A stretch of DNA of 45,563 nt from Candidatus Gastranaerophilales bacterium (GTDB taxonomy: Bacteria > Cyanobacteriota > Vampirovibrionia > Gastranaerophilales > Gastranaerophilaceae): positions 1-45,563 of the forward strand of contig CALUWH010000015.1 of the NCBI GenBank assembly GCA_944324435.1, read 5' to 3'. Shown in pieces: positions 19,518 through 23,385 of this stretch. Below the pieces are notes generated by a model. The model was not told where the DNA came from. It worked only from the letters and a program-made list of their open reading frames with translations, and ran no database searches. The first letter of the stretch is position 1, and each line of letters begins with the position of its first letter. The position numbers were made by a program, and so were the translations under genes.

Positions 19518-20128
19518 ATATACTGGCTTTTGACACATGTCTGGATAAAACATATATAACTCTGGCAAATAACGATAAGGTTGTAAAAAGTGAGGTAATT
19601 TTATCCGACGGAGAGAATTACCATTCTGCGTATCTGATTTCAACCATAGTAAAAATCCTGAAAGAGACAGGGCTTACGCCAAAGGATTTAGATATGGTTG
19701 CAACGGATATCGGGCCGGGAAGTTTTACCGGAATAAGAGCGTGTGTAACTGTTGCAAGAGTTTTGGCACAGCAGCTTGATATCAAGGCTGTGGGAGTTTC
19801 TTCGCTAGAGATTTTATCAAAAATTCTTGGCGGTGATGATTTGGTTGCGCTGGATGCAAGAAAAAATAAAGCCTATGTTTATGACGGTAAAATTTTAGGA
19901 GCAATAGAGCTGGAGGAAGCTGATAAAATAGTTAAAGGGCGCAAGCTCATTACTGACAACAGCTTGCTCGAAAGATTCAGCCAACATACGGATAAGGCTG
20001 TTTCATACCAGCAGGAAAATTATCCTATCGGAGAAATTTTAGCAAGGCTTGCTTTATCAAAACAAGAAACCGACTGGAAAAAATTAAAACCGCTTTATAT
20101 TCAGCCGCCTCCTGTTTTCGGACGATGA
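19514..20128 (+). CDS. tsaB: tRNA threonylcarbamoyladenosine protein TsaB
   Basis: ASKHA-fold scaffold of 204 residues, partner of TsaD. The start NILAFDTCLDKTYITLA and GPGSFTGIRACVTVARVLA are the family signatures. The start codon is TTG in a four-base overlap with tsaE. Its 3' end overlaps the convergent GNAT-like gene by 28 bases, so the two messages are antisense at their ends. The usual third neighbour rimI, a GNAT acetyltransferase, is missing here, while a GNAT-like protein is encoded on the opposite strand. Confidence 0.95.
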   Translation: MNILAFDTCLDKTYITLANNDKVVKSEVILSDGENYHSAYLISTIVKILKETGLTPKDLDMVATDIGPGSFTGIRACVTVARVLAQQLDIKAVGVSSLEILSKILGGDDLVALDARKNKAYVYDGKILGAIELEEADKIVKGRKLITDNSLLERFSQHTDKAVSYQQENYPIGEILARLALSKQETDWKKLKPLYIQPPPVFGR

Positions 20129-21537
20129 TACAGGGTTTCATAAACCGAAAGACGTTTTTTCAAATCTTCAAAGTCTTTTAGATACATATAAACCGGCTCA
20201 TGGGAATCTTTGGGAAGATTGTTTATGTTATGAGAAAACGGCTTAAATCCATATCTGAGGTACATAAGATATGGCGGCTTTTTAACACCGTTGTATCCTA
20301 GAGCTTTCACAAATACCGGCGCGCAATCTTTTTTTACAAGAAGTTTCATAAGTTCATAGCCGGCAATTTTTCCGGCATTGTTATAAACTTCGGGCTTATT
20401 ATTAAAAAAGCTGTTTATATAGGTGTAATATTTTGAATTCGCAACAATCTCATTTACTGTCGAATCATTTACTACATTGTTTTTTTCAATCCAGTTTTTT
20501 GATTCTCTGGTATTTAAAACAGAAAACTGAATTCCCGAAATCAAAGCATCTTCTTCTGATAAAATTCGATTTTTAGCCCCCTCATTCAATTCATTAAGCT
20601 CTTCTTTATTGAAACTTGGAGGAAAGTTAAAAGATTTATTTTTAAGCTTTGATACATCATATACCATAATATTATGGGATTTACCGAAATCAGAAAACAG
20701 AACTATCGCAGGAATATTCCTGCCGTCTTTTGTATTCACGGAAACATTATCGATAACAAGCCCCAGCCCGTTTATATAATCTCCTTGTTTATCCGAAACA
20801 GCTGGGGCAAAACAAAGAGCTTCCAAGTCTTTAGTAAAAACTCCTTTTTGTTTTTGCAGATTATTCAAGGCCTCATAAGAAACAGCAAGTTTCTTCATCC
20901 TGCAAAACTCTTTGTCAGAAAACCCTCCTGCAAAATCGGCATCTTTTCGAAGCAAAAAAGCATTCATCCTATCAAAGATTTCACTTTTTTTTAACAAAAT
21001 ATCTTCTATTTGAAATTTATTATATTTTTTCTCTTCTTTTTTTATACTCAACAAGTCACGGGTATTAAACTCGCCGGTAAGATTCAAAATTTTATCTTTT
21101 GGATGAACATACATACTCCCTTTGAGTATTGGATTTTGAAGAGCGTAATCCGTATCAAACCAATTGTAGTAAGGCGTCGGAGCAAGATTTGGATTATCTT
21201 TATTCTTTATTTTATTAATCGCATACAAAACAAGATTATCTTTCTTTATCTTCTTTTGTATAGAAGGAGTAAATTCTTCACGGTTTTGCGCAAGTTTAAG
21301 ACAATCATCAATATAGCGCTGTTTTAATGAATCCAAATCCTTACCATTCAATTTTTTAACCAGTTTATCAACCGCTTTCAAATCTTCTTTTGAATATCCT
21401 CCGGATACAGAGACAAGCTTTTGGTAAACATTTCTTTTGCTCATACTAAAAGTATCAGCAGGTATAGAAAAACTAAACCTTTTTACAATTCTGGTAATAA
21501 CATTTTGAAAATTTACCGGCAGAAACTGAACTTTCAT
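20101..21537 (-). CDS. unknown protein with GNAT-like C-terminus
   Basis: Protein of 478 residues from the ATG at 21537. The first 330 residues are Lys/Asn-rich and not recognised. The C-terminal part (about 380-478) resembles the end of a GNAT acetyltransferase: GYELMKLLVKKDCAPVFVKA, then YLMYLRYGFKPF (compare FYxKxGF) and VYMYLKD as the last strand. The acetyl-CoA loop is not obvious, so activity is uncertain. The N-terminus MKVQFLPVNFQNV resembles that of another unknown at 40044. The gene starts 90 bases from the RiPP precursor on the opposite strand, so their promoters are divergent and it may belong to that cluster. It overlaps tsaB tail to tail by 28 bases. Confidence 0.75.
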   Translation of the reverse strand: MKVQFLPVNFQNVITRIVKRFSFSIPADTFSMSKRNVYQKLVSVSGGYSKEDLKAVDKLVKKLNGKDLDSLKQRYIDDCLKLAQNREEFTPSIQKKIKKDNLVLYAINKIKNKDNPNLAPTPYYNWFDTDYALQNPILKGSMYVHPKDKILNLTGEFNTRDLLSIKKEEKKYNKFQIEDILLKKSEIFDRMNAFLLRKDADFAGGFSDKEFCRMKKLAVSYEALNNLQKQKGVFTKDLEALCFAPAVSDKQGDYINGLGLVIDNVSVNTKDGRNIPAIVLFSDFGKSHNIMVYDVSKLKNKSFNFPPSFNKEELNELNEGAKNRILSEEDALISGIQFSVLNTRESKNWIEKNNVVNDSTVNEIVANSKYYTYINSFFNNKPEVYNNAGKIAGYELMKLLVKKDCAPVFVKALGYNGVKKPPYLMYLRYGFKPFSHNINNLPKDSHEPVYMYLKDFEDLKKRLSVYETLYHRPKTGGG

Positions 21538-21575
21538 ACCTAACCTAAACCCACAAAATAATAAATTTGCTATTA

Positions 21576-21603
21576 TTGACACAAACTCTTTAACATGTAA
21601 AAT
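21576..21603 (+). promoter_or_regulatory. promoter of the RiPP operon
   Basis: A consensus -35 TTGACA (21576-21581), a 16-base spacer and TAAAAT (21598-21603) stand 24 bases before the precursor ATG. It is the best-formed -35 seen in the window. AAAGGAG (21613-21619) follows as ribosome site. It lies in the 90-base divergent gap shared with the GNAT-like gene. Confidence 0.75.
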
Positions 21604-21627
21604 CAAAAAGGAAAAAAGGAGTTTATT

Positions 21628-21855
21628 ATGTTTGTACCAAGAATTCAGACTAAACCTGCTGCATTTATGCCTATGCTGGACAAATCATCTGCCAAAGTAT
21701 CTGATGCAGCAAAAAAACTTAGTGAAGTAAAATTTGATATACTTCCTAAAAGGGCTGTAAGCGAGCCGCAGAAAGATTCTTTTGTAAGAAAATGTGCATA
21801 CGGTGATAATCCGTATGGCGATTGTTTTAGCCCATACGGTGGGTTTGTCTGCTAA
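21628..21855 (+). CDS. RiPP precursor peptide, Tyr-Gly and Cys-rich core
   Basis: Peptide of 75 residues, proposed as the substrate of the next two genes. Residues 1-55 form a Lys-rich helical leader without a signal peptide. The C-terminal core (about 56-75) reads CAYGDNPYGDCFSPYGGFVC and ends in Cys. It holds three Xaa-Tyr-Gly motifs (AYG 57-59, PYG 62-64, PYG 69-71), three Cys (56, 66, 75) and two YGD words. AAAGGAG lies 8 bases before the ATG. The stop shares one base with the ATG of the PqqD-like gene (TAATG). The RiPP call rests on context plus core composition; I recognise no named precursor family. Possible chemistry: Tyr-Gly splicing, Cys thioethers, or Tyr-Asp cyclophanes. Confidence 0.75.
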   Translation: MFVPRIQTKPAAFMPMLDKSSAKVSDAAKKLSEVKFDILPKRAVSEPQKDSFVRKCAYGDNPYGDCFSPYGGFVC

Positions 21856-22127
21856 TGAAACTTAAACTTGCAAAGTATACTTTAAAGAAATACGAGCCCA
21901 AACTGGGTTTGTATTTCTTTTATAATGCAAAAAATAAATCATTTTGGAATTGCGATTATCCGACAGGCTCTGTGATAAGTGCCTTTGATGGAACCATAAG
22001 CACTGATGAAGTCATTAGGATTCTCGCTTCTAATAATTCTGATTTTTCAAAAGCAGAATTTGAAGAAGTTTTTACGGAGATTTTCAACTTTCTTCTAAAA
22101 GAGGAGTTTCTTGTCTGTGTTGATTGA
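21855..22127 (+). CDS. PqqD-like RiPP recognition element protein
   Basis: Protein of 90 residues with the PqqD (RRE) pattern: N-terminal strands (YTLKKYEPKLGLYFFYNAKNKSFW), then TGSVISAFDGTISTDEVIRIL matching the family block in which Gly is followed by a helix and a D/T-E-V-I turn, and a final helix pair ending in LLKEEFLV. Such proteins form a winged helix that holds the leader peptide for the modifying enzyme. It is coupled to the precursor by TAATG and overlaps the radical SAM gene by up to 17 bases. The domain is free-standing, not fused to the enzyme. Confidence 0.85.
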   Translation: MKLKLAKYTLKKYEPKLGLYFFYNAKNKSFWNCDYPTGSVISAFDGTISTDEVIRILASNNSDFSKAEFEEVFTEIFNFLLKEEFLVCVD

Positions 22128-23331
22128 TAAAGAGTATGAAGAAGCAATAAGATTCTATCTTGATAAGATCTTAACCTCGCCGGATGATTTGAACGAAGCC
22201 AATGAAGACCGGCTGGATTTGAATGTCGTTAAGCCTTTTACAAAATATATCACCGACAAATCACCTGACAAATTTTTATTTTCAACCCCTATGTTTGCCT
22301 GGTGGAATTTAACATCTGCCTGCAATCTAAGGTGTGTACACTGCCTTTATAACGAAACCGAATACTCCGCTTCAGATGATTTAAACACGGAAGAAGCACT
22401 AAGAGTTGCAGACGAGCTCATTAACGATATGGGAATTGTAGAAGTCTTACTAAGCGGCGGCGAGATTTTCCTCAGAAACGATTTACTCAATATCGTTAAA
22501 AAGTTTAAAGATAACAACGTCGCAGTTAAGCTAATGACCAACGCCCTTTTGATACAAGATAATGATATTGAAACCCTGTCAGACCTGTTGAATCCATATA
22601 CTGATGTTGTGCAAATCAGCCTTGACGGAGCAACAGAAAAGACCTTTAAATCGATTAGACAAACCGATAACTTTGAGAAAATTACATCTAATATTAAAAA
22701 GCTTACGGAAAAAGGAATAAGAGTAACTGCCGTATGTACCGTAAACAAACTTAATATAAATGAGGTTATCGAAACATATAAACTTGCAGAAAAACTCGGG
22801 GTTACGGTTTTTTCCGCAGGGAAAACCGTCTGCTACAATGAAAGCCATAAAAAACTTATTGTACCTGCTAGAGAACTTATGATTCTTGCATCAAAACTCT
22901 TGAAAGAAGAATCCCAAACGTACCTAAAACTTGCTCTGTTTCAGTCTATAGAGTTATTGAATATACAGGAAGTTGAACAAATTATGCAGGAAGAAAAGTA
23001 CAAAAAAATTATTCAAAAATATACCATAGACCCTCCGCGCTCTTGTAACCTTCATGACAGGTTATGTATCTTCGCTGACGGTAATGTCTCAATGTGTCTG
23101 CACACAGACTGCGAAAACACCCTGCTCGGAAATGTTCGTAAAAATTCTCTTACAGAGATTTGGCAAAGAAGAGAAAAAAATATATTTTTTCAGCCAAGAC
23201 AGACAGAAAACATGCCCTGCAAAGACTGCAAATATAACAAAATCTGCAACAGCGGATGTATGGCAAAAGCTTACCTCAGATTCGGCACCATAAATATGCC
23301 GGAGCTTGAATGTAAACATTATCCCCAATAG
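22111..23331 (+). CDS. SPASM radical SAM peptide-modifying enzyme
   Basis: Enzyme of up to 406 residues. The radical SAM cluster motif is CNLRCVHC (Cys71, 75, 78), followed by LLSGGEIF (GGE motif for SAM) and VQISLDGATEKTF. The C-terminal SPASM region carries Cys312, 319, 329, 334, 370, 373, 379, 383 and 401, including PCKDCKYNKICNSGC, enough for two auxiliary 4Fe-4S clusters. Residues 1-60 are not recognised and could help bind leader. The start is uncertain: TTG 22111 is only 4 bases from GAGGAG, while GTG 22117 has 10-base spacing. SPASM enzymes act on ribosomal peptides (sactipeptides, ranthipeptides, cyclophanes, spliceotides); which reaction applies cannot be read directly. Confidence 0.92.
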   Translation: MSVLIDKEYEEAIRFYLDKILTSPDDLNEANEDRLDLNVVKPFTKYITDKSPDKFLFSTPMFAWWNLTSACNLRCVHCLYNETEYSASDDLNTEEALRVADELINDMGIVEVLLSGGEIFLRNDLLNIVKKFKDNNVAVKLMTNALLIQDNDIETLSDLLNPYTDVVQISLDGATEKTFKSIRQTDNFEKITSNIKKLTEKGIRVTAVCTVNKLNINEVIETYKLAEKLGVTVFSAGKTVCYNESHKKLIVPARELMILASKLLKEESQTYLKLALFQSIELLNIQEVEQIMQEEKYKKIIQKYTIDPPRSCNLHDRLCIFADGNVSMCLHTDCENTLLGNVRKNSLTEIWQRREKNIFFQPRQTENMPCKDCKYNKICNSGCMAKAYLRFGTINMPELECKHYPQ

Positions 23332-23385
23332 AATTATTGCTTATTTACTTTGCTTACGCTATCCTTATTATGTGAGGAGAAAGCA

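What the first reader, a model, noticed from the sequence alone, without database searches (positions are those of the whole stretch)
21576..23331. Compact RiPP operon: precursor, PqqD-like RRE and SPASM radical SAM enzyme
Seen: a consensus promoter, a 75-residue peptide with a Tyr/Gly/Cys-rich tail, a 90-residue PqqD-like protein and a SPASM radical SAM enzyme, joined by one-base (TAATG) and up to 17-base overlaps. Known: PqqD-like proteins bind RiPP leaders for radical SAM enzymes such as PqqE. Inference: this makes a modified peptide. The precursor matches no family I recognise, and such operons are little studied in this lineage. The stop-start coupling of a precursor to its RRE is unusual, because precursors are normally made in excess.
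Basis: partly seen in the sequence, partly recalled or inferred. Interest (0 to 1): 0.9.

Follow-up and report, generated by a model that had tools for sequence, protein, structure and literature searches.

The report
Modified-peptide operon of gut bacteria
A small mobile gene cassette in an uncultured gut relative of the cyanobacteria encodes a short peptide, the helper protein and radical enzyme that almost certainly modify its cysteine-bearing tail, and a previously overlooked acetyltransferase-like partner gene that travels with such operons.

Summary
A 75-aa peptide (21628-21855), a 90-aa protein (21855-22127) and a SPASM radical SAM enzyme (22111-23331) lie behind a TTGACA-N16-TAAAAT promoter in a Candidatus Gastranaerophilales genome. 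The 90-aa protein folds as an RRE (AlphaFold2 pLDDT 96; best solved matches are RRE-leader complexes and PqqD). Every relative with readable flanks in this enzyme family (about 20 operons) has a small ORF at the expected place. The tails vary, but nearly all Cys residues lie in the last 25 residues, and in the window's clade the peptide ends in Cys. Tyr-Gly is not conserved, which argues against tyramine splicing as the family's reaction. The precursor is under purifying selection. So this is a new RiPP family, restricted in my sample to one family of gut Cyanobacteriota/Melainabacteria.

All 13 members found, in profile scans covering up to 366 genomes, lie beside such an operon (11 within 260 bp, two at ~1.9 kb). 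GNAT gene plus operon form a ~3.2-kb insert between tsaB and a SEC-C gene; five relatives have the empty site. The best guess for chemistry is a Cys-anchored thioether; the acceptor residue and the partner's role are undetermined.

The parts
20101..21537 (-). Divergent gene for a ~478-aa protein with a predicted C-terminal GNAT-fold domain (about residues 258-473) and a helical N-terminal part; co-inherited partner of the operon
   Evidence: Profile hits in 12 of 366 family genomes, all beside a precursor/RRE/rSAM operon; AlphaFold2 pLDDT 72.5, Foldseek and VIA matches are mostly GNATs
21572..21601 (-). Promoter-like site TTTACA-N18-AATAAT facing the GNAT-fold gene, overlapping the operon promoter
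   Evidence: Consensus scan, 10/12; sequence kept in G011 and G027
21576..21603 (+). Operon promoter TTGACA-N16-TAAAAT
   Evidence: Consensus scan, 11/12; identical in G011, hexamers kept in G027
21617..21621 (+). Ribosome-binding site AGGAG of the precursor
   Evidence: Sequence
21628..21855 (+). Precursor peptide, 75 aa
   Evidence: ORF; orthologues L035, L036, more distant L037, L038 (three copies), L074, L048; dN/dS 0.09-0.16; no Pfam or NCBIfam family
21793..21852 (+). Predicted core CAYGDNPYGDCFSPYGGFVC: basic-residue-free, acidic, three Cys, last residue Cys; follows Arg-Lys
   Evidence: Tail comparison; 10 synonymous and 3 nonsynonymous differences from G011 in codons 55-75
21855..22127 (+). 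RRE protein (PqqD-like), 90 aa
   Evidence: 8 of 13 homologues match Pfam PqqD, best 6.7e-6; predicted RRE fold
22111..23331 (+). Radical SAM/SPASM peptide maturase, about 406 aa (start codon TTG 22111, GTG 22117 or TTG 22120)
   Evidence: Pfam Radical_SAM 1.2e-23 and SPASM 8.9e-10; conserved CX3CX2C, GGE and seven-Cys SPASM in 14 homologues
20129..23385 (.). Insert of about 3.26 kb (GNAT-fold gene plus operon) between tsaB and the SEC-C gene
   Evidence: tsaB and the SEC-C gene are adjacent (~70-110 bp apart) in G023, G022, G010, G005, G015

Best explanation
A four-gene RiPP locus carried as a mobile cassette. Shown: conserved precursor, RRE-fold protein (predicted), intact SPASM radical SAM enzyme, co-inherited GNAT-fold gene (predicted fold). 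Inferred: the RRE binds the precursor's leader (residues ~1-55) and hands it to the radical SAM enzyme, which abstracts hydrogen atoms in the 20-residue Cys-bearing core (CAYGDNPYGDCFSPYGGFVC) and installs one or more Cys-anchored thioether crosslinks, of the sactipeptide/ranthipeptide type. The leader is then cut near the Arg-Lys before the core by a protease not encoded here, and the GNAT-fold partner acylates the peptide, most simply at its new N-terminus since the core has no Lys, as tailoring or self-protection. Estimated: RiPP locus ~0.95; thioether as main chemistry ~0.5; GNAT acting on this peptide ~0.4.
For: Gene set recurs in ~20 related operons. Predicted RRE fold with TbiB1-leader, TfuB1-leader and PqqD as best solved matches. 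CX3CX2C, GGE and CX11GX4C / CX2CX5CX3C / C SPASM pattern conserved. Of all Cys in 23 precursors, 50 lie in the last 25 residues (of 575 positions) against 6 in the rest (of 1157), two of these six being the upstream core repeats of L080; in the window's clade 10 of 11 precursors end in Cys and the other has it penultimate. L080 carries three near-identical core repeats, the layout of a multi-core RiPP precursor. Purifying selection on the precursor, strongest in the core. GNAT-fold partner: 13 of 13 found copies beside such operons. StsB (thioether-forming) is among the three best NCBIfam models across the enzyme family.
Against: No mass spectrum, transcript or enzyme assay. No NCBIfam maturase model reaches its cut-off; the best are ScmE, mycofactocin and heme-synthase models, not thioether enzymes. 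CX3D (C56-D60 here) is not conserved and Cys-to-acid spacings are not clearly enriched over shuffles among independent representatives. Relatives L075b and L076b have a single Cys. The GNAT-fold domain lacks a clear canonical R/Q-x-x-G-x-G/A acyl-CoA motif and its 478 residues were modelled at only middling confidence. No protease, transporter or immunity gene nearby.
Confidence: 0.55

Rival explanations
1. Spliceotide-like: the radical SAM enzyme with its PqqD partner excises tyramine at the three X-Tyr-Gly sites (AYG, PYG, PYG), leaving alpha-keto-beta-amino acids, as PlpXY does in Pleurocapsa.
For: Three XYG in the window core and three in the relative L074, NYGDYGDTCGASYGDW; PlpXY acts on XYG, naturally MYG and LYG (PMC10533398); same gene logic (rSAM plus PqqD-like partner) in a sister lineage of the cyanobacteria.
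Against: XYG is absent from the tails of the close relatives L037, L038 and L048 and of all sister clades; Tyr-Gly is no commoner than in shuffled tails; one of the three sites is Asp-Gly in G011 and G027; the PlpX-type model TIGR04103 scores 86.6 bits against a cut-off of 725; no Nif11-type leader was found by Pfam or NCBIfam.
Confidence: 0.1
2. C-C or C-O crosslinking of aromatic side chains (Tyr/Trp/Phe) in the core, as in PqqE, daropeptide- or cyclophane-type enzymes, with Cys serving another purpose such as metal binding or a disulfide.
For: Tails are rich in Tyr/Trp/Phe; a trans-acting PqqD partner is shared with PqqE (PMC8326336); L075b and L076b have Trp and Tyr but one Cys.
Against: The position and kind of aromatic residue vary, while Cys is the one residue kind present in every tail and all but absent from the leaders; PqqE, DynA and WgkB models score far below cut-off.
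Confidence: 0.25
3. The partner GNAT gene is not a tailoring enzyme but a resistance, regulatory or toxin-type acetyltransferase, so that the cassette acts as a competition or addiction module.
For: Divergent from the operon with overlapping promoter-like sites in the window; GNAT-fold toxins and the tabtoxin resistance protein appear among fold matches; locus inserted as a cassette.
Against: Fold matches do not distinguish GNAT functions; in L040, L077 and L079 the gene is co-directional just upstream of the precursor, as expected of a biosynthetic gene too.
Confidence: 0.25
4. The 75-aa ORF is not a precursor: the enzyme and its PqqD-like partner act on another protein, and the ORF is a chance or regulatory leader.
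For: No precursor family model matches.
Against: Small ORF with Cys-bearing tail at the same place in every relative with readable flanks; three copies in L038; three core repeats in L080; dN/dS 0.09-0.16.
Confidence: 0.03

Closest known systems
Ranthipeptides/SCIFF (PapB-freyrasin) and sactipeptides (StsB, SkfB, AlbA, CteB)
   Same: SPASM radical SAM maturase, RRE, Cys-bearing core; the window core contains one CX3D (C56-D60), the PapB motif
   Different: RRE is a separate protein here (fused only in L075 and L076); CX3D not conserved; enzyme scores far below the curated cut-offs; no transporter or protease; GNAT-fold partner
Spliceotides (PlpA/PlpX/PlpY)
   Same: rSAM plus PqqD-like partner, XYG triplets in the window core
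   Different: XYG not conserved among relatives; enzyme far below the TIGR04103 cut-off; no Nif11 leader detected
PQQ biosynthesis (PqqA/PqqD/PqqE)
   Same: short precursor, trans-acting PqqD chaperone, SPASM radical SAM enzyme
   Different: no PqqB/C/F, no conserved Glu-x-x-x-Tyr core, PqqE model 83 bits against cut-off 381
SynChlorMet cassette (ScmD/ScmE/ScmF)
   Same: best NCBIfam models for the enzyme (ScmE, 133 bits) and for five RRE homologues (ScmD, best 4.5e-5)
   Different: far below cut-off 400; most operons here have a single rSAM enzyme
Selidamides and other GNAT-containing RiPP clusters (phaeornamide, PhaN)
   Same: a GNAT-superfamily enzyme beside a RiPP precursor
   Different: lanthipeptide/proteusin context, ornithine/Lys acylation; here no Lys in the core and the GNAT part is divergent and fused to a ~250-aa helical region

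Membership tests
RiPP radical SAM/SPASM biosynthetic locus | Radical SAM CX3CX2C motif and SPASM cysteines for two auxiliary clusters | tested here: met
   C71, C75, C78; C312, C329, C370, C373, C379, C383, C401 invariant in 14 homologues; Pfam hits
RiPP radical SAM/SPASM biosynthetic locus | Precursor gene with conserved leader and variable core beside the enzyme | tested here: met
   Small ORFs in all relatives with readable flanks; purifying selection
RiPP radical SAM/SPASM biosynthetic locus | RRE (domain or protein) | tested here: met
   Pfam PqqD in 8 of 13 homologues though not the window's own; RRE fold, Foldseek E 1.5e-4, prob 1.00 to TbiB1
RiPP radical SAM/SPASM biosynthetic locus | Peptide is post-translationally modified and released | not testable with these tools
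   Needs expression and mass spectrometry
Ranthipeptide / sactipeptide | Cys-to-carbon thioether in the product | not testable with these tools
   Cys conserved in tails, bond unknown
Ranthipeptide / sactipeptide | Repeated or conserved CX3D/E-type Cys-acceptor spacing (PapB type) | tested here: not met
   Spacing varies; no clear enrichment over shuffled tails among independent representatives
Spliceotide (PlpXY) | XYG sites conserved in the cores | tested here: not met
   Only in the window trio and L074; 3 of 23 tails against 2.7 expected
Spliceotide (PlpXY) | PlpX-type enzyme (NCBIfam TIGR04103) | tested here: not met
   86.6 bits, cut-off 725
PQQ (PqqE) | PqqE equivalog score and PqqBC/F neighbours | tested here: not met
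   83.2 bits, cut-off 381; neighbours are GNAT-fold, tsaB, tsaE and SEC-C genes
SynChlorMet cassette (ScmE) | ScmE equivalog score | tested here: not met
   132.9 bits, cut-off 400
GNAT superfamily (partner 20101-21537) | GNAT fold | tested here: met
   Top Foldseek matches are GNATs (best E 4.6e-4, prob 1.00); VIA Z up to 9.8 within residues 258-473; predicted model only, pLDDT 72.5
GNAT superfamily (partner 20101-21537) | Acyl-CoA motif R/Q-x-x-G-x-G/A | tested here: inconclusive
   A conserved (Y/F)xNA(G/S) stretch sits at the expected place but is not canonical; no Pfam GNAT hit

The most novel reading that the evidence does not exclude
The family performs a radical SAM reaction not yet described, centred on a C-terminal Cys, followed by acylation by a new class of GNAT-fold enzyme; the cassettes give an uncultured gut lineage a rapidly diversifying peptide used in competition or signalling.
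Probability: 0.15. Interest if true: 0.8.

Novelty: new variant of a known kind. Interest (0 to 1): 0.5.

Why it matters
Gastranaerophilales are uncultured gut members of the Cyanobacteriota/Melainabacteria group, and my paper searches turned up no RiPP described from them. The locus gives a minimal three-gene system that can be tested in E. coli, about 20 natural precursor variants to read the substrate rule from, and a co-inherited GNAT-fold gene that predicts an extra step or a self-protection function. The local replacement of the core between near-identical strains is a handle on how such peptides diversify.

Tried and rejected
Tyramine splicing as the family reaction: suggested by three XYG in the window core, rejected as a family-wide reaction because XYG is not conserved. 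CX3D/PapB rule: one CX3D here, not conserved and not clearly enriched. Shared LP motif in leaders: present in 11 of 23 precursors (sister clades; shuffle mean 1.9), but my pattern did not match the window clade. Profile search of the RRE family against PDB sequences gave only weak PqqD-type hits among chance hits; the fold search settled it. Wider distribution: 292 genomes across the phylum gave hits only in the same family; one scan of genome contigs with a single query found only two very close relatives; viral contigs gave only generic radical SAM proteins, 20-42% identical. Orphan precursors elsewhere: none beyond the known loci in 107 genomes.

Full report
Observation. The window lies in contig 15 of a 1.95-Mb genome. 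Two near-identical operons belong to named Candidatus Gastranaerophilales MAGs (97% and 90% enzyme identity). That order sits in the Cyanobacteriota/Melainabacteria group.

Enzyme. The 406-aa protein matches Pfam Radical_SAM and SPASM. In an alignment of 14 homologues the CX3CX2C and GGE motifs are invariant, as are the SPASM cysteines in the order CX11GX4C, CX2CX5CX3C and a final C. No NCBIfam maturase model reaches its curated cut-off; the best is ScmE at 132.9 bits against 400. It therefore belongs to no named maturase family in that library.

RRE. The 90-aa protein alone matches nothing, but 8 of 13 homologues match Pfam PqqD, and several match ScmD and PqqD in NCBIfam. AlphaFold2 with that alignment gives pLDDT 96.1. 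The best solved matches are TbiB1 with leader, TfuB1 with leader and PqqD, followed by TigE, CteB and, more weakly, SuiB.

Precursor. It matches no family. Relatives were collected by whole-genome searches and read for small ORFs. All with readable flanks have one directly before the RRE or the enzyme. L038 has three tandem copies, and L080 has three near-identical core repeats. Among the window, G011 and G027 the precursor has dN/dS 0.09-0.16. Across 23 precursors, 50 Cys lie in the last 25 residues (of 575 positions) and 6 in the rest (of 1157). In the window's enzyme clade (support 97/98), 10 of 11 precursors end in Cys and one has it penultimate. In most precursors a stretch free of Lys and Arg, usually acidic, follows a last basic residue; in the window it is CAYGDNPYGDCFSPYGGFVC after Arg-Lys. 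I read this as the core, with cleavage near that site; this is inference.

Two motifs that first caught the eye do not hold up across the family. Tyr-Gly occurs only in the window trio and L074, no more than in shuffled tails. Cys-to-acid spacings are not clearly enriched among independent representatives. The modification is thus not assigned; a Cys-anchored thioether is the most economical guess because Cys is present in every tail and nearly absent from the leaders.

An overlooked partner. A divergent gene at 20101-21537 (478 aa) starts 90 bp upstream of the precursor, and promoter-like sites of the two directions overlap. Searching 115 genomes with the single protein, 107 with a six-member profile, and 366 of the family with the profile gave hits in 6, 6 and 12 genomes, always beside a precursor/RRE/rSAM operon. 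Of the 13 pairs, 11 lie within 260 bp and two at about 1.9 kb, in differing orientations. Two biases apply: the profile was built from operon neighbours, and five of the family hits are weak and cover only the C-terminal part. Not every operon has it: L043, L044, L045, L039 and L042 do not, and several others are cut off by contig ends. The predicted model (pLDDT 72.5) shows a GNAT-fold C-terminal domain; a canonical acyl-CoA motif is not clear. Tailoring or self-protection are both open. GNAT enzymes do act in other RiPP pathways, for example selidamides (PMC9505594).

Mobility. In five genus members tsaB and the SEC-C gene are neighbours about 70-110 bp apart; in the window, G011 and G027 the GNAT-fold gene plus operon, about 3.26 kb, sit between them. 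In G030 the same divergent pair lies at another chromosomal site. Two other genomes carry different spacing at the same place, so it may be an insertion spot. No recombinase or flanking repeat was sought.

Core replacement. Between the window and G011, codons 55-75 of the precursor differ at 13 of 63 bases (10 synonymous, 3 not), against 58 of 1641 in the rest of the operon (Fisher p about 8e-7; the region was chosen after seeing the data). The amino-acid pattern is kept. Local exchange of the core is the simplest reading; a mixed metagenome assembly is a possible artefact.

Assessment. The finding is a genuine, previously unassigned RiPP family with a co-inherited GNAT-fold gene. The architecture (precursor, PqqD-like RRE, SPASM enzyme) is known; the precursor family, the partner and probably the product are new. 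Its chemistry, release, export and role are not shown.

Noticed in passing
G000 contig 21, 29306-30424 (L002, L043): A second operon of the same enzyme family in the same genome, with order precursor-enzyme-RRE and tail DRYCGSDFACSLLY; no GNAT-fold neighbour.
   Followed up: partly
L047, L049, L050, L051, L053, L054 (other genomes of the order): A separate family of ~343-aa radical SAM proteins; several lie beside proteins with repeated RYAGP motifs, probably another RiPP-like system.
   Followed up: no
window 21790-21852 versus L035: The core codons are far more diverged synonymously (dS about 1.9) than the rest of the operon (0.1-0.15); a perfect 7-bp inverted repeat CATACGG...CCGTATG lies in the window core.
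   Followed up: partly
L075 and L076 (G292, G348): RRE and radical SAM enzyme are fused in one ~525-aa protein, present twice in tandem, behind a single precursor ending in YRQC.
   Followed up: partly
L039 and L042 (G029, G003): Two different radical SAM enzymes flank one RRE gene behind a precursor with the tail motif WDGCGCEDWC.
   Followed up: no
L041:3045-4829 and L078:6536-8305: A ~590-aa protein with no Pfam match lies between operon and GNAT-fold gene in both genomes; possible further partner.
   Followed up: partly
many ORFs in L040, L043, L077-L083: Many proteins of this lineage begin with a short motif of the type M-x-I-x-x-I...F-x-G; precursors and GNAT-fold partners share its start. 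Meaning unknown.
   Followed up: no
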